Virus record (IMG/VR): IMGVR_UViG_3300027749_000049
Coordinates: 62,001 to 126,000 of that record
From: a virus
Reading direction: 5' to 3' (one strand)
DNA: 64,000 nucleotides
Shown: one piece after another, positions 19,398 to 61,305 of the stretch
Position numbering within the stretch: the first letter of the stretch is position 1
Layout of the letters: each line of letters begins with the position of its first letter
Notes under the pieces: generated by a model
Seen by the model: the letters and a program-made list of their open reading frames with translations, nothing else
Database searches by the model: none
Told to the model about the DNA's origin: nothing
Made by a program: the position numbers and the translations under genes

Positions 19398-19799
19398 ATG
19401 AAAGAAGCTTCTACATCAGACATTAGTTTTGTCCGGTTCTGTATTGCAGAATTAGGGATCGAAACAAGTCCCAATATCAGGATAGGCGATGACCACCGTA
19501 AGGCGCAAGAGCACCGAGCTATGGGTTACTATAGTCCAGCAGATAACTTGATCTGGGTGTTACGCGGTAGTCGGGTACCTGCAGACTGGTATCGAACCCT
19601 AGCCCATGAATTGGTCCACTGGCGCCAGCGCGAGCTAGGCCAAGGTTTGGACGGTGCAGACGGTAGCGAAATCGAGAATGAAGCTAACTCTAAAGCAGCA
19701 GTACTCTTACGGGAATGGGGTAGAAGAGATGAATTAATTTATGTCTTACCTAATGAGGCGCAACCGGCTGACCCCCAAGTAGAGCCTGCGACCCCATAA
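19398..19799 (+). CDS. Zinc metallopeptidase-like protein
   Basis: 133 residues. AHELVHWRQRELGQG is a zincin HExxH motif, with a probable third ligand in EIENEANSKA. The family (IrrE/SprT-like small zincins) is common in phages; substrates are unknown. The start is the only ATG before the conserved core. Its last 50 bases overlap the convergent recombinase-like gene. Confidence 0.75.
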   Translation: MKEASTSDISFVRFCIAELGIETSPNIRIGDDHRKAQEHRAMGYYSPADNLIWVLRGSRVPADWYRTLAHELVHWRQRELGQGLDGADGSEIENEANSKAAVLLREWGRRDELIYVLPNEAQPADPQVEPATP

Positions 19800-20415
19800 T
19801 CAGGTAGCTTAAGTCTTCCTTTAACTCTGCCCTGTATTCTTCCTGATACAGGGTTTTTTGTATAACATGCAGTTCAACACCGTGCCAGACCAGGAATCTC
19901 TCTAGAATCTCAGCACCCGCAAACCTGGCCAGCCTGTCCGGGGTCTCAACTATAACCATGCTTATCTGCTTGCGTAACACTAAGTCAAAGATCTTGTCTA
20001 GCCCAGACCTGCCGACTAGGCTACCAGCCTTACCGACCTCCGCAATTACCTGGTCTACCCTGATCCCGGCCGCCGTGCAGTAGGCTAGCACCCGGTCCTG
20101 CTGAGCCTGCAGCCGGGTTCGGGATGAGACGCCGGCCGCGCCCTGGTCCGGAATTCCCGCCGCCCGGCAGTAGACTACGACTTCCCTAGACTGGGGTAGT
20201 TTACTCCCTAGTAGCTTCAAGAGGTCCTGCTTGTCGTAGTAGATCCGGCCGTTGATCTCGTTCTTCCAGTGTCTTAGGGTACCGGCTTTAACGTAGCGGT
20301 CTAGGGTCTTTAAGGAAATACCTAGGAATTCCGCGGCCCCCTTCTTGTACACGAGCTCGCCGGTTGGGAACTCGGTTAGGGGTCTAGAGTCTGGGGTCTG
20401 GGCTGGTTCCTGCAT
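19750..20415 (-). CDS. IS607-type serine-recombinase-like protein lacking the usual catalytic Ser
   Basis: 221 residues: an N-terminal MerR-type helix-turn-helix (AAEFLGISLKTLDRYVKAGT, about 27-46) and a resolvase domain (about 77-190). The domain keeps VVVYCRAAG, the Arg-bearing ETPDRLARFAG loop and ELHVIQ, but the active-site RVS(S) is replaced by RAAG. A VSSRTRLQAQQD segment follows a small insertion and could hold a displaced serine. No TnpB partner is visible, and the gene is very GC-rich, unlike its surroundings. Likely a domesticated or degenerate transposon gene. Confidence 0.72.
   Translation of the reverse strand: MQEPAQTPDSRPLTEFPTGELVYKKGAAEFLGISLKTLDRYVKAGTLRHWKNEINGRIYYDKQDLLKLLGSKLPQSREVVVYCRAAGIPDQGAAGVSSRTRLQAQQDRVLAYCTAAGIRVDQVIAEVGKAGSLVGRSGLDKIFDLVLRKQISMVIVETPDRLARFAGAEILERFLVWHGVELHVIQKTLYQEEYRAELKEDLSYLIMGSQALLGGQPVAPH
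20204..20212 (+). repeat. CTCCCTAGT core within recombinase-like gene
   Basis: Nine-base core on the + strand, antisense to the recombinase-like gene. Confidence 0.5.
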
Positions 20416-20566
20416 GGGGTTATTTATCTACTGCCCGGCCTGCCCGCTTGGACAGCCCCCGGCCCCGGGTCCAGCAGTGTCCATATACTTCTCGAGTCCG
20501 GGCCCCCTCTAGAGCCCGGGAGCCTGCTCGGGTCCGTGGAGGCCGCGGTCGCCGTACTCCCTAGTC

Positions 20567-20740
20567 CCCATGAATGCACAGCTTGTACCCTTTGGGCGGT
20601 GGCAAGCAGGGGTACTCCCTAGTCCCACGGGGCCGGGGTCAGGGCTGGGCTCGGCTGGCCTGGCAGGGGTACTCCCTAGTCCCGAGCCGGGCTGGCCTGG
20701 TTGGGTAGAGCCGGGCTGGCTGCAGGTACTCCCTAGTCCT
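20567..20740 (+). repeat. Array of four CTCCCTAGTCC(C/T) copies
   Basis: Copies start at 20567, 20625, 20672 and 20729 (spacings 58, 47 and 57), all on the + strand and each preceded by GTA (GGGGTA or similar). The first three are the exact 12-mer; the last ends in T. The spacings are close to multiples of one helical turn. Confidence 0.88.
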
Positions 20741-20800
20741 GGGTAACCAGGACATGGGCCTGCCCTAGACTTGGCTAGTCTAGTAGTCAGGGTCTATAGG

Positions 20801-21003: not shown

Positions 21004-21088
21004 AGTCAGGTGGCTGAAATGGTAACAGCACAACGAAACTCTTAGGGTTGTTGGTCAAAACTTATAGGTTCGATTCCTGTCCTGATTA
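21004..21088 (+). tRNA. tRNA-like gene A, expanded anticodon loop
   Basis: Acceptor AGTCAGG/CCTGATT, D-arm GCTG...CAGC, T-arm ATAGG-TTCGATT-CCTGT are all good, and length (85) fits a class II (Leu/Ser-type) tRNA. The anticodon stem that pairs well is ACAAC/GTTGT, which encloses a 12-base loop (GAAACTCTTAGG) rather than 7. No anticodon can be assigned with confidence. 3' end is ACA, no encoded CCA. Confidence 0.65.
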
Positions 21089-21091
21089 CAA

Positions 21092-21162
21092 ATAAATGAG
21101 TTCACAATTTGCCGATGCACTTCGCCATGCGGATTCACAATGGGCTAATGTACCTCATTTAT
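21092..21162 (+). ncRNA. Structured spacer RNA between tRNA-like genes
   Basis: A perfect 9-bp closing stem (ATAAATGAG/CTCATTTAT) encloses about 53 bases that contain TTCACAAT twice. No T-loop sequence is present, so it is not a tRNA. Confidence 0.5.
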
Positions 21163-21164
21163 AC

Positions 21165-21241
21165 AGTCAGGTAGCTAAATGGGTAAAGCGGTTCCTCTTC
21201 ACAAAGATGGAATGATGCAGGTTCGAGTCCTGTCCTGACTA
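21165..21241 (+). tRNA. tRNA-like gene B, anticodon arm is one long hairpin
   Basis: Acceptor AGTCAGG/CCTGACT, D-arm GCTAAATGGGTAAAGC and T-arm GCAGG-TTCGAGT-CCTGT are tRNA-like. The anticodon arm folds as GTTCC-TCTT-CACA-AAGA-T-GGAAT, a 9-bp hairpin with a 4-base loop, leaving no standard 7-base anticodon loop. Confidence 0.6.
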
Positions 21242-21252
21242 CACAGATTAAT

Positions 21253-21262
21253 GGTATAATAA
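21253..21262 (+). promoter_or_regulatory. GGTATAATAA promoter within the tRNA-like cluster
   Basis: Matches the GGTATAwTA element; suggests that genes C-E form a separate transcript. About 70 bases of untranslated leader with a GTGCAC palindrome follow. Confidence 0.5.
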
Positions 21263-21335
21263 CCCTATAAAAGTAGAAACAACGTCTCCCCAGTTTCTTG
21301 TTCCGTGCACGGAAAGGATTTATAAGGAGCAATTT

Positions 21336-21441
21336 AGTCAGGTGGCGGAATGGTAGACGCTAAGAAAGAGATAAACTTTGTACTTCACATGATGGTACAC
21401 TAAAGCATTATCTCGTATAGGTTCGAATCCTATCCTGACTA
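21336..21441 (+). tRNA. tRNA-like gene C with a long extended anticodon stem
   Basis: Acceptor AGTCAGG/CCTGACT, Leu-type D-arm (GGCGGAATGGTAGACGC) and T-arm ATAGG-TTCGAAT-CCTAT. Between D- and T-arms lies an extended hairpin: GAGATAA/TTATCTC, CTTT/AAAG and TGTAC/GTACA stacked under an 11-base loop (TTCACATGATG). Length is 106 bases against about 85 for class II tRNAs. Confidence 0.6.
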
Positions 21442-21443
21442 CA

Positions 21444-21523
21444 AATAGATGTATTGATCGTCTAGCGGTAAGACATATCGTAAGATAAGACGCAGGTTCA
21501 AATCCTGGGTATTTGCATCTATT
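21444..21523 (+). tRNA. tRNA-like element D with a tetraloop in place of the anticodon arm
   Basis: D-arm GTC-TAGCGGTAA-GAC and T-arm (GCAGG-TTCAAAT-CCTGG) are recognisable. Between them is TATC-GTAA-GATA, a 4-bp hairpin with a GNRA-type loop and no anticodon. The outer ends pair as AATAGATG/CATCTATT, but this stem is not directly next to the T-arm, so the acceptor is uncertain. Confidence 0.45.
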
Positions 21524-21527
21524 AAAT

Positions 21528-21611
21528 AGTCAGGCGGCGAGCATGGTGGCACCTACCCAAGTGGCTTGAGCTCGTTAATGGTCCATACCCGTTCGAATCG
21601 GGTCCTGACTA
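21528..21611 (+). tRNA. tRNA-like gene E
   Basis: Acceptor AGTCAGG/CCTGACT and T-arm ACCCG-TTCGAAT-CGGGT are perfect. The D- and anticodon arms do not fold in the usual way; one reading has a loop CTACCCAA, another places CAAG-TGG-CTTG as a mini-hairpin. No anticodon assigned. Confidence 0.55.
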
Positions 21612-45378: not shown

Positions 45379-46068
45379 ATGATTAAAAACAGAACACCAT
45401 ACCTTGGTAAAATTAGACTTAAGTTTGAAAAGTTTCCTCACTATTCAGGAAAAGACAAACTAAATAAAGTACACCTAAACTTGGGCTTTACTAAATTAGT
45501 AAGTCGAATAACTCCATTTAAGGATTTTAAAGGCTGGATTGTAAACCCTAACTGTATTAAATTAATAGAGGAGAATACTGGCCTAAAGATAAAGACTCAC
45601 ACAGTCGATCACCATGGCCAAGGAGATGAGTTTCTTCTTTACCATTCAAGTATACACCCTGACGGTCATTACGTGGGATCAATTGAAGAGGGCTGGTGGT
45701 ATTATAATAACAAGTTAAGAGCAACCAAAGGCTCGCATCCACATACTGCATGGCATAAAGAAAAGAAACAATGGGTCGGTTATTCACATAGAGCTTCCCA
45801 GTCTTTTGGTAAAGGCGATAGGTTATTTACTGAGACCTGGACTATCCCAGTTAAAGATCTATTAAGCTATGATCGGTACTATATGAAACATATTGACAAG
45901 TTTTATGAAGAGGTTGAACGCTGGGCCAAAACCGGAGCAACTGACGACTTAACCCTTGCAAAATGGGCTACTGACTATATTCCATTTAAGCTTAGAGGAG
46001 CTAAAACAATTCATTCATACGAACAGGCATATGAAGCAGCTGTTAACTTTGCAAAATACGTCAGCTAA
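45379..46068 (+). CDS. Unknown protein with His-rich core
   Basis: 229 residues. Several His residues in clusters (HTVDHHGQGDEFLLYHSSIH, SHPHTAWHKEKKQWVG) could bind a metal. C-terminal helical part (DRYYMKHIDKFYEEVERW). No family recognised. Confidence 0.7.
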   Translation: MIKNRTPYLGKIRLKFEKFPHYSGKDKLNKVHLNLGFTKLVSRITPFKDFKGWIVNPNCIKLIEENTGLKIKTHTVDHHGQGDEFLLYHSSIHPDGHYVGSIEEGWWYYNNKLRATKGSHPHTAWHKEKKQWVGYSHRASQSFGKGDRLFTETWTIPVKDLLSYDRYYMKHIDKFYEEVERWAKTGATDDLTLAKWATDYIPFKLRGAKTIHSYEQAYEAAVNFAKYVS

Positions 46069-58240: not shown

Positions 58241-58813
58241 ATGAAAATAATATTTTTAGATATAGATGGTGTTCTTAATTGTGAAAATGCATACAAAAAT
58301 GGAGAATGTCAATATCAGGGGTGGACTTGGGAAGACGGTCGCAAAGATCATTACCAACGTTTTTGCGTACGTAGCAAGGATTTATTAAATAAGCTCATTG
58401 ATGAAACTGGAGCAAAAATTATTATCAGTTCAACATGGAGAATGAGTGGTATTGAATTTATGAGGAAGGTGTGGGAGTTTGAAGAAATGCATGGCGAAAT
58501 AATAGGAATTACTCCATCATTGAGAACCAATGGTATTAATATTCCAAGAGGAATGGAAATTAAATATTATCTAGAAAATGATTTAAAATTCCAACACATT
58601 AATTGGTCAGAAGAAGAACAACAGAAATGCATAGATACTTCAGGAGTAGAGAATTATATTATTATTGACGATGATTCTGACATGCTTTATGGACAACGAA
58701 ATCATTTTGTACACGTATTACCGTCCCCAAGAAATAAAGATGGATTTAATCAATTCTATTATGAAACCGCTTTACAGAAGTTAAGTAGAACAATAATCGA
58801 TTTGAATTATTAA
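58241..58813 (+). CDS. HAD phosphatase of the Swiss-Army-Knife RNA-repair type
   Basis: 190 residues. DIDGVLN gives D7 and D9; KIIISSTWRMSGIE is motif II and IIIDDDSDML motif IV. The shape (long insert with a Trp/Asp-rich cap) fits the HAD domain found in Swiss-Army-Knife RNA-repair proteins, which removes 3'-phosphates or processes RNA ends. Adjacent to an RNA ligase. Confidence 0.85.
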   Translation: MKIIFLDIDGVLNCENAYKNGECQYQGWTWEDGRKDHYQRFCVRSKDLLNKLIDETGAKIIISSTWRMSGIEFMRKVWEFEEMHGEIIGITPSLRTNGINIPRGMEIKYYLENDLKFQHINWSEEEQQKCIDTSGVENYIIIDDDSDMLYGQRNHFVHVLPSPRNKDGFNQFYYETALQKLSRTIIDLNY

Positions 58814-58828
58814 TAAAAAAATATAACA

Positions 58829-59974
58829 ATGGAAAATAAAGACTCAGTTTGCTATGTAGCAAAAATTAACGAAATTAGGCCTATTGAAGGTGCAGACAAC
58901 ATTGAATTAGCAATTGTTGGAGGATGGAATTGTATTACTAAAAAAGGAGAATATGCAGCTGACGATTTAATTGTAGTTGCTACAACTGATGCAGTCATTC
59001 CACAAGAATTATCAGATGTAATGAACGTGACAAATTATTTACGTAAAGGTGGACGTGTTCGTACTGTAAAATTACGTGGAGTATATTCAGAATGTTTAAT
59101 TATTCCGTTTGAACATTGTAAAGATGGCACTAAATTAGCCAATACCAAATGGAACGAAGGAGAAGACATGATGATGTTCTTAGGTATTTTCAAGTATGAA
59201 CCGCCAGTTAAAACAATATCATTAGGCGGTGGTAAAAAGATTCGCTATCAAGATAACCCTAATTTTCATGTTTACTACAAGTTTCCTAACTTGAAGAATG
59301 TAGCTGGGATGTTTACTGAAGATGATGCGGTAGAAATTACTCGTAAAATCCACGGAACAAATGCTCGTTATGGAATTGTTAAGAAGACTAAATTAACATT
59401 TTGGGACAAGGCTAAGAAATTCTTTGGTTTGGCTGACAAATGGATAGGTTATGAATTTGTAGTTGGTTCTCATAATGTTGAAAAGGGTTCTGATTCTCAA
59501 GGTTTCTACGATACGAATGTTTGGTACCAAATTGCAGACAAATATGAAATCAAACAGAGATTATGGGAATACGTTAAGAGTGTTGCAATGGAACCAGAAA
59601 TCGGAGACGGCATTACAATCTATGGAGAAATTTATGGAGCTGGAATTCAAAAAAATTATGAATACGGATTAACTGACATTGAGTTTGTTGGGTTTGATGT
59701 CAAAGAGGCTGGAGAATACTTAAGTCCTATCAATTCTAAATTGATGATTAAAGATATTTTGCAATTGCCTTATGTTGAAATCTTACATTTTGGAAACTGG
59801 TCTCAAGAAACCCAAGACAAATTTGTATTCAATAATTTTATTGCAGGTACTAAAGTTCCAGAAGAAGGAATTGTAATTAAGTACCATACTGGAGAAAGAA
59901 ACAAAGTTGCAAAGGTAATTAATCCTGACTACTTGATTTACGGAGAAAAACACGATATCGGAGACTCACACTAA
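58829..59974 (+). CDS. RNA ligase of the DRB0094 (Rnl5) type
   Basis: 381 residues. N-terminal OB-like domain (RPIEGADNIELAIVGGWNCI, about 15-120) and a nucleotidyltransferase domain with catalytic Lys173 in KIHGTN, EFVVGSHN, and the late motifs EEGIVIK and VAKVINPDYL. It seals RNA nicks or breaks with ATP. Next to HAD and cREC genes, so an RNA-repair role is likely. Confidence 0.92.
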   Translation: MENKDSVCYVAKINEIRPIEGADNIELAIVGGWNCITKKGEYAADDLIVVATTDAVIPQELSDVMNVTNYLRKGGRVRTVKLRGVYSECLIIPFEHCKDGTKLANTKWNEGEDMMMFLGIFKYEPPVKTISLGGGKKIRYQDNPNFHVYYKFPNLKNVAGMFTEDDAVEITRKIHGTNARYGIVKKTKLTFWDKAKKFFGLADKWIGYEFVVGSHNVEKGSDSQGFYDTNVWYQIADKYEIKQRLWEYVKSVAMEPEIGDGITIYGEIYGAGIQKNYEYGLTDIEFVGFDVKEAGEYLSPINSKLMIKDILQLPYVEILHFGNWSQETQDKFVFNNFIAGTKVPEEGIVIKYHTGERNKVAKVINPDYLIYGEKHDIGDSH

Positions 59975-60933: not shown

Positions 60934-61040
60934 AGCCGGGTGGTGGAAACGAGCAAGTGAAAACTTGCCGATGGATAGACACAGGTGCTTAAAATGCTCC
61001 CGCGTAAATGCAGTTACCCGTTCGAATCGGGTCCCGGCTA
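60934..61040 (+). tRNA. tRNA-Leu(UAA)-like with a hairpin insertion in the D-loop
   Basis: Acceptor AGCCGGG/CCCGGCT, T-arm ACCCG-TTCGAAT-CGGGT and anticodon loop CTTAAAA (TAA) look like Leu. The D-arm reads GTGGAAA then about 21 inserted bases with GCAAGT-GAAA-ACTTGC (a 6-bp GNRA hairpin) then ATGGATAGACAC. Removing the insertion restores a normal Leu D-arm. Anticodon stem has several wobble or weak pairs. Confidence 0.8.
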
Positions 61041-61199
61041 CAAAAATAAACTCAACAAATAAAGTCGTGAGTTACTTTAAAATAGCCAATTATAAGCCAA
61101 CATAAAGCTGTTGGATACAGACGGAGTAATTACCAGAGTATAGGCACCGATTGTGATATTGTAACAAATACCCTTCTGAGTTGGGTTTGTTTTTAATAT
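61041..61199. other. Gene-free spacer between tRNA-like genes
   Basis: About 160 bases, AT-rich on both sides of a short more GC-rich part. No convincing ORF and no tRNA T-loop. It may hold processing sequences for the flanking tRNAs; nothing definite seen. Confidence 0.4.
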
Positions 61200-61305
61200 A
61201 GCCAGATGGGCGTAATGCGGGATGGTACCCAAGTCCCCAACTCGAAAGAGGTAAGGTTGTCTAATCCGTCTAGTACGGTATCCGGTTCGAGTCCGGCTCT
61301 GGCTT
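61200..61305 (+). tRNA. tRNA-like gene F with expanded D and anticodon regions
   Basis: Acceptor AGCCAGA/TCTGGCT and T-loop TTCGAGT are clear; a class II variable arm CCGT-CTAGT-ACGG is present. The D-arm seems to hold an extra CGTAATGCG and the anticodon arm an extra CTC-GAAA-GAG mini-hairpin within CAAC...GTTG. No anticodon could be assigned. Discriminator T is unusual. Confidence 0.6.

What the first reader, a model, noticed from the sequence alone, without database searches (positions are those of the whole stretch)
21004..21611. Cluster of tRNA-like genes with the same acceptor stem but abnormal anticodon arms
Seen: four units (A, B, C, E) share acceptor AGTCAGG/CCTGA(C/T)T and good T-arms, yet A has a 12-base anticodon loop, B a 9-bp hairpin with a 4-base loop, C a stacked hairpin of about 16 bp with an 11-base loop, and E no standard arm; element D has TATC-GTAA-GATA in place of an anticodon arm. 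Canonical tRNAs elsewhere in the window (Ser, Asp, Leu-UAG) fold normally, so this is not general decay. They may be anticodon-less decoys against tRNA-cutting nucleases, precursors with small introns, or a novel tRNA-mimic class.
Basis: seen in the sequence. Interest (0 to 1): 0.9.

Follow-up and report, generated by a model that had tools for sequence, protein, structure and literature searches.

The report
Phage tRNA-like RNAs with swappable inserts
Many uncultured phages, this one included, carry small RNA genes built like the top half of a transfer RNA but with the codon-reading arm replaced by one of hundreds of different, often conserved RNA inserts, which looks like a natural carrier for phage regulatory or decoy RNAs that no searched database describes.

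Summary
Elements A, B, C and E share a perfect AGTCAGG/CCTGAYT acceptor stem, a T arm and a D arm, and none has a canonical anticodon arm; ordinary tRNAs in the same phage are normal. It is not local decay. Scans of IMG/VR with half-element patterns gave 398 distinct elements in 211 phage stretches. Among AGTCAGG elements with a Leu-type D arm, 2 of 197 have a canonical anticodon arm; by a looser test 240 of 277 AGTCAGG-type genes lack one, against 24 of 281 with other acceptors. The tRNA core is kept (A15-U48 with compensatory G15-C48, U-1, C74). The inserts form about 270 sequence clusters. Some recur in unrelated phages with compensatory changes, and one family also exists free-standing, outside any tRNA scaffold. 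In a syntenic relative the inserts are replaced while the chassis stays. Best reading: a phage-specific tRNA-like chassis, matured as a tRNA, that carries swappable sRNA payloads and cannot decode. Leucylation is possible but unproven; a coupling test was negative. What the payloads bind is unknown. No Rfam family, named-phage homologue or paper found describes it. Introns and tmRNA are disfavoured; a nuclease-decoy role stays open.

The parts
21004..21088 (+). Element A: tRNA-like; acceptor AGTCAGG/CCTGATT, D arm, ACAAC/GTTGT hairpin with 12-nt loop, T arm, A73
   Evidence: Rfam tRNA 37.0 bits; fold
21092..21162 (+). S1: conserved non-tRNA structured RNA between A and B, closed by ATAAATGAG/CTCATTTAT
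   Evidence: 84% identical in L278, L279, L282, L292 and L307, where it also lies directly beside AGTCAGG tRNA-like elements; fold z -2.47
21165..21241 (+). Element B: tRNA-like with a 9-bp bulged hairpin and 4-nt loop in place of the anticodon arm
   Evidence: Rfam tRNA 50.8 bits; ARAGORN mislabels it tRNA-SeC; fold
21267..21331 (+). S2: conserved non-tRNA structured RNA between B and C (GTAGAAACAAC..CCAGTTTCTTGTT..GGATTTATAAGGAG)
   Evidence: 85-89% identical in L218, L146 (two tandem copies) and L129; 3' end kept in syntenic relative L020 2-35
21336..21441 (+). Element C: tRNA-like with Leu-type D arm and a ~16-bp stacked hairpin insert
   Evidence: Rfam tRNA 38.3 bits; fold z -2.97; homologous insert in L152, L261, L262 with GAGATAA/TTATCTC changed to GAAATTA/TAATTTC
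21445..21522 (+). Element D: weaker tRNA-like, D-like hairpin, TATC-GTAA-GATA, T-like hairpin, closing helix ATAGATG/CATCTAT; different acceptor
   Evidence: Rfam tRNA 21.0 bits, below cut-off; fold z -2.56
21528..21611 (+). Element E: tRNA-like with perfect acceptor and T arm, no anticodon arm; in syntenic relative G002 the same T arm and downstream DNA carry a different insert
60934..61040 (+). Leu-type tRNA gene with a hairpin inserted in the D loop (GCAAGTGAAAACTTGC)
61200..61305 (+). Second class of tRNA-like element (GCGTAATG-hairpin-TCC..AAGGTTG core)
   Evidence: 17-sequence alignment, 8 of 12 predicted pairs with double changes
58241..59974 (+). RNA-repair pair: HAD_SAK_2 domain protein and RNA ligase, upstream of the second tRNA-like group (context only)

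Best explanation
These are phage small-RNA genes built on a tRNA-like chassis. Shown from sequence: the acceptor stem, T arm, D arm and elbow contacts of a tRNA are conserved, while the anticodon (and variable) arm is replaced by an insert; inserts differ between elements, but families of inserts are conserved between unrelated phages, covary, occur in chassis with different acceptors, and in one case occur without any chassis. Inferred: the RNA is transcribed (in some cases from a promoter placed at its own 5' end), is cut by host RNase P and 3' tRNA-processing enzymes, receives CCA, and so becomes a stable RNA that cannot read codons; the chassis may also be leucylated and bound by EF-Tu. 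The insert is the working part: a trans-acting RNA that binds a host or phage factor (most likely as a decoy or inhibitor in host takeover or counter-defence) and is exchanged as a cassette between phages.
For: (1) Family: 398 distinct elements in 211 phage stretches, about 270 insert clusters; no full-length relative in 50,697 named phage records by the four queries tried. (2) tRNA core under constraint: 122 of 133 matches of the 5' half alone have the paired 3' half, with T48 in 118; A15-T48 in 209 and compensatory G15-C48 in 9 of 245; T-1 82%, A73 92%, C74 98%, flanks close to those of ordinary phage tRNAs; compensated acceptor swaps such as AGTCAAG/CTTGACT, GGTTGGG/CCCAACC and GATTATG/CATAATT with a constant insert. 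(3) No decoding arm: 2 of 197; 37 canonical and 240 not, against 257 and 24 for other tRNAs. (4) Inserts behave as functional RNAs: 80 pairs with unrelated flanks (0.54, random 0.57) share inserts at 0.82 identity; LC family 99.5% of cells paired, 40 double-change cells against 13.2 shuffled; C insert covaries. (5) Payload separable from chassis: the F1 insert sits in about 30 distinct tRNA-like copies and in 3 distinct free-standing RNAs with three other, still paired P1 helices. (6) Cassette swap in synteny: relative G002 keeps S2, the E T arm and downstream DNA but has other inserts; ordinary tRNA-Ser (in G001) and tRNA-Asp (in G002) are identical to the window's. (7) Bacteroidota-type -7 box TANNTTTG in 22 cases at 9-24 nt upstream against 3.7 expected, 11 of them at exactly 12 nt, and 2 for ordinary tRNAs.
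Against: No expression data. The loci were fetched with AGTCAGG-type patterns, so family size and acceptor dominance are partly biased (insert-seeded scans, reduce but do not remove this). Inserts as a set are only mildly more structured than nearby DNA (mean z -0.61 against -0.24), so some could be filler. The coupling expected if LeuRS charging mattered was not seen: A73 is 89% with a Leu-type D arm and 88% without (p 0.87). No payload target was found; no antisense match to the own locus. The A, B, D and E inserts of this window have no close homologue in the fetched loci.
Confidence: 0.6

Rival explanations
1. Anticodon-less tRNA decoys: the RNAs soak up host nucleases or toxins that recognise the tRNA elbow, acceptor or CCA tail; the inserts only block use by the ribosome and are free to vary.
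For: tRNA-targeting immunity is widespread, including CCA-tail cleavage by Cas12a3 (PMC12851939) and anticodon nucleases that phage tRNAs evade (PMC10264068; PMC11555353); the window phage has RNA ligase, an RNA-repair HAD protein and a Thoeris inhibitor.
Against: Decoys would not need inserts conserved at 82% between unrelated phages, covarying inserts, or an insert that also exists without the tRNA part. RNA-ligase relatives lie near elements in only 6 of 211 loci.
Confidence: 0.15
2. Leucylated carrier: the elements exist to supply or divert leucyl-RNA through host LeuRS, which ignores anticodon and variable arm, for a non-ribosomal use or to starve translation.
For: E. coli LeuRS needs A73, A15-U48, G18G19 and A20a, and charges tRNA-Leu lacking anticodon and variable arms (PMC9976931); 167 of 211 Leu-type elements keep A14, A15, A20a and A73 together.
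Against: About 40% of elements lack the Leu-type D arm; A73 is equally common with and without it; LC and class-2 chassis have other D arms. It does not explain the inserts.
Confidence: 0.12
3. Pre-tRNAs with small introns in the anticodon or D loop, spliced by a phage endonuclease and RNA ligase.
For: The phage has an RNA ligase; D-loop hairpin insertions into otherwise normal-looking genes occur (window 60934-61040).
Against: Shortest inserts are 23-33 nt in all, too short for an anticodon arm, variable arm and intron; 2 of 197 have a canonical arm; no intron family rang in the cluster; F1 occurs outside tRNA genes.
Confidence: 0.05
4. tRNA pseudogenes or recombination scars with no function.
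For: Relative G001 has only a T-arm relic at the syntenic place; the inserts of A, B, D and E are unique so far.
Against: Compensated acceptor, T-arm and Levitt-pair changes, promoter boxes at a fixed distance and conserved inserts in unrelated flanks.
Confidence: 0.05

Closest known systems
tmRNA (SsrA, RF00023)
   Same: A tRNA-like top half (acceptor, D loop, T arm) with the anticodon arm replaced by other RNA; charged by an anticodon-independent synthetase (alanine)
   Different: No Rfam tmRNA match in the cluster; inserts of about 20-150 nt in which no tag reading frame was noticed; A73 with no G3-U70 pair; several per genome and many insert types. Two contigs carry a separate true tmRNA (L040, L269).
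Phage-encoded tRNAs (arrays; tRNAs that evade anticodon nucleases)
   Same: Interleaved with ordinary phage tRNAs in some arrays, same 5' and 3' flanks
   Different: No canonical anticodon arm
tRNA-Leu
   Same: D arm GTGGCGGAATTGGTAGACGC, A15-U48, A20a, A73 in the main subclass
   Different: A1-U72 acceptor AGTCAGG, anticodon and variable arms absent; other subclasses have other D arms
Viral tRNA-like structures: plant-virus 3' TLS, gammaherpesvirus vtRNA/TMERs (from general knowledge)
   Same: Viral RNAs that borrow tRNA shape or processing
   Different: Plant TLS are 3' ends of RNA genomes; TMERs add hairpins 3' of the tRNA-like part rather than replacing the anticodon arm; eukaryotic hosts
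Engineered tRNA-scaffold expression of RNA aptamers (from general knowledge)
   Same: Works like it: cargo RNA placed where the anticodon arm was
   Different: Natural, phage-borne, hundreds of cargos

Membership tests
Canonical (decoding) tRNA | 7-bp acceptor, T arm, D arm | tested here: met
Canonical (decoding) tRNA | 5-bp anticodon stem with 7-nt loop and U33 | tested here: not met
   window A, B, C, E none; family 2 of 197
Canonical (decoding) tRNA | aminoacylation | not testable with these tools
   identity elements present in the main subclass, coupling test negative
tmRNA (RF00023) | match to the tmRNA covariance model | tested here: not met
   none in the window
tmRNA (RF00023) | alanine identity pair G3-U70 | tested here: not met
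   T3-A70 in 210 of 223; T3-A70 in the window elements
tmRNA (RF00023) | tag reading frame | not tested
   none noticed on reading inserts; no systematic scan
Intron-bearing pre-tRNA | insert removal restores a canonical anticodon arm | tested here: inconclusive
   short inserts with no arm; removal not modelled one by one
tRNA-Leu identity set | A73, A15-U48, G18G19, A20a | tested here: inconclusive
   A14, A15, A20a and A73 together in 167 of 211 Leu-type elements, T48 in 177 of 191; not kept in the other D-arm classes, and A73 not coupled to the D arm
tRNA-nuclease decoy | binds or is cut by a tRNA-targeting nuclease and protects the phage | not testable with these tools
   needs experiment

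The most novel reading that the evidence does not exclude
Phages of (probably) Bacteroidota carry a hitherto undescribed class of tRNA-chassis small RNAs: a conserved, tRNA-processed, non-decoding carrier into which hundreds of functional RNA modules have been slotted and between which modules are swapped, together with further conserved small RNAs in the same islands, forming an RNA-based arsenal against host factors.
Probability: 0.5. Interest if true: 0.95.

Novelty: categorically new. Interest (0 to 1): 0.87.

Why it matters
It would be a large natural family of non-decoding tRNA-like RNAs carrying interchangeable cargo, in phages with no isolate among the named records searched. It would mean tRNA annotation hides a class of phage regulators: programs drop them or mislabel them (B is called tRNA-SeC). 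The cargo modules, such as F1, are ready-made candidates for RNA inhibitors of host or defence proteins, and the chassis is a natural counterpart of the engineered tRNA scaffold.

Tried and rejected
Named phages: blastn searches gave no full-length relative, only partial T-arm or ordinary-tRNA matches, and none for the window cluster. Bacterial genomes: exact 5' half in 3 short MAG contigs only; 1 of 399 genomes of one order, on the same short contig. Antisense to own locus: longest complement 9.1 nt on average against 9.4 in unrelated loci. Neighbour genes: commonest family in 19 of 211 loci, so no partner gene; RNA ligase, HAD and Tad6 relatives in 6, 4 and 3 loci. Rfam: no known family for free-standing F1 and only tRNA, tmRNA and one group I intron in 146 kb of arrays. 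LeuRS coupling: negative. Window E against the LC family: only loosely alignable, so not claimed as a member. A search for all inserts outside scaffolds was swamped by edge matches and not used. Literature: six library searches found no description; preprints are not held.

Full report
What is in the window. The window is part of a 128 kb IMG/VR virus record. At 21004-21611 lie four tRNA-like units with the acceptor AGTCAGG/CCTGAYT (A, B, C, E) and a weaker one, D. Each of the four has a paired acceptor, a T arm and A73. None has a canonical anticodon arm in sequence or fold. Two further stretches between the units, S1 (21092-21162) and S2 (21267-21331), are conserved RNAs of their own in other phages, so most of the 600 bases is non-coding RNA. 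A second group lies at 60.8-61.3 kb, about 1 kb after an RNA ligase gene: a normal tRNA-Leu-UAG, a Leu-type gene with a D-loop hairpin, and a second class of tRNA-like element.

The family. Nearly all were the same kind of object: AGTCAGG, often a D arm GTGGCGGAATNGGTAGACGC, a variable insert, then the T arm. A scan with only the 5' half also hit its limit, and 122 of 133 matches had the paired 3' half. Together these gave 398 distinct elements in 211 stretches, with about 270 insert clusters. A few of the 398 are merged neighbours or ordinary tRNAs with a similar acceptor. Sixteen large contigs carried 1-9 copies each, all on one strand, with none for the reversed control pattern. Neighbouring genes are very diverse, the commonest family being in 19 of 211 loci, and include phage terminases. 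An exact form of the 5' half occurs in the collection of 84,980 bacterial and archaeal species genomes only on three short contigs.

Not decay and not decoding. In an identical scan of the same loci, 257 of 281 tRNA genes with other acceptors have a canonical anticodon arm, against 37 of 277 AGTCAGG-type genes (loose criterion). With a D-arm-seeded scan and a strict criterion it is 2 of 197. The core is constrained like a tRNA: T8, A14, A15-T48 in 209 of 245 with compensatory G15-C48 in 9, C74 in 241, U at -1 in 200. Acceptor stems change on both sides together, for example AGTCAAG/CTTGACT, GGTTGGG/CCCAACC, TGTGGGA/TCCCACA.

The inserts. Most are unique in the sample, but families recur. In 80 pairs whose flanks are no more alike than random (0.54 against 0.57), inserts are 0.82 identical. 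The C insert recurs in L152, L261 and L262, with the outer helix changed from GAGATAA/TTATCTC to GAAATTA/TAATTTC, two compensatory double changes. To avoid scaffold bias I scanned with insert sequences alone. The LC insert gave 21 distinct copies, all in tRNA-like chassis, with acceptors AGTCAGG, GATTATG, AATCATG, AATTATG and AGTTAGG, all matched on the 3' side. On an 18-sequence alignment 99.5% of cells pair, 40 cells show double changes (13.2 in shuffles), and one D-stem pair shows all four Watson-Crick types. The F1 insert gave about 30 distinct chassis-borne copies and, in five contigs (three distinct sequences), the same RNA with no tRNA part at all. Its P1 helix is GATAAC/GTTATC in the chassis, and GTTGAGC/GCTTGAC, GAGACAC/GTGTCTC or CCACAC/GTGTGG when free, with the same conserved nucleotides around it. 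One free copy follows a sigma-70-like promoter. Rfam has no match for it. This is the strongest single argument that the insert is a working RNA and the tRNA part a carrier.

Exchange. In relative G002, which shares the gene just downstream (82% identical protein) and the 702-aa gene (60%), the 3' end of S2 is followed by a different element where C stands here. The E position has the same T arm (ACCCG/CGGGT) and downstream DNA but another insert, belonging to a family also seen in L122 and L132. In G001 only a T-arm relic remains, read through by a small open frame. Ordinary tRNA-Ser (G001) and tRNA-Asp (G002) are identical to the window's.

Expression signals. The Bacteroidota-type -7 box TANNTTTG is concentrated just upstream of tRNA-like elements (22 at 9-24 nt, 11 at exactly 12 nt, against 3.7 expected) and not of ordinary tRNAs (2). 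This suggests that some are transcribed alone with a start near the mature 5' end, and that hosts are Bacteroidota. That this box is the Bacteroidota promoter type rests on general knowledge.

How it probably works. Shown: a conserved, covarying, tRNA-like top half, no decoding arm, conserved portable inserts, insert replacement in synteny. Inferred: maturation by RNase P, 3' processing and CCA addition; stability; action of the insert in trans on a host or phage factor. Leucylation fits the known rule that E. coli LeuRS ignores anticodon and variable arms and needs A73, A15-U48, G18G19 and A20a (PMC9976931), and 167 of 211 Leu-type elements keep A14, A15, A20a and A73. But A73 is no commoner with a Leu-type D arm than without, so I do not claim it. 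The decoy model is kept as a rival because tRNA-cutting immunity is common, including cleavage of CCA tails (PMC12851939), and this phage has RNA-repair genes.

Novelty. No Rfam family, no named phage among those searched, and no paper found in the library describes this. The nearest relatives in working are tmRNA and engineered tRNA scaffolds. Tests for canonical-tRNA and tmRNA membership fail on defining features. I rate it categorically new as an RNA class, with function unproven; the library holds no preprints, so a recent description could have been missed.

Noticed in passing
window 20440-20760: G+C-rich non-coding stretch with repeated copies of GTACTCCCTAGTCC; 92% identical in relative G001 (L018 335-574) although the 702-aa protein is only 60% identical there; beside an HTH_17/resolvase gene (19750-20415, minus strand) of IS607-transposase type.
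   Followed up: partly
window 45379-46068: Protein matching the type I Thoeris inhibitor Tad6 (Pfam, 2.4e-23), directly after tRNA-Ser.
   Followed up: no
window 58241-59974: HAD_SAK_2 RNA-repair domain protein next to an RNA ligase, upstream of the second tRNA-like group.
   Followed up: partly
window 61061-61195 and L255: Third conserved non-tRNA RNA (GTATAGGCA..TGTGA..TGTAACAAATACCC) between two tRNA-like elements.
   Followed up: partly
L008/L018 about 833-1010: Small open frame for a membrane-like peptide runs in frame through a leftover T arm and acceptor 3' strand.
   Followed up: no
L109, L180, L189, L218, L291: Short hairpins inserted into the D loop of tRNA-like elements, at about the same place as in window 60934-61040.
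   Followed up: partly
L040 7609-8193 (minus strand); L269 2327-2691: tmRNA genes on IMG/VR contigs, the first abutting a group I intron.
   Followed up: no
L043, L080, L102, L161: Another large tRNA-like family with conserved CACCCACTCGTCTCGTGGGCGCTGAA and GGGTTGACCACAAAGCCGGCTATTTTGT stretches and compensated acceptors.
   Followed up: no
upstream of many elements (L041, L071, L123, L170, L248, L249): Recurring short hairpin GACRSCTCGGAAAGACGAGSAACA immediately before tRNA-like elements.
   Followed up: no
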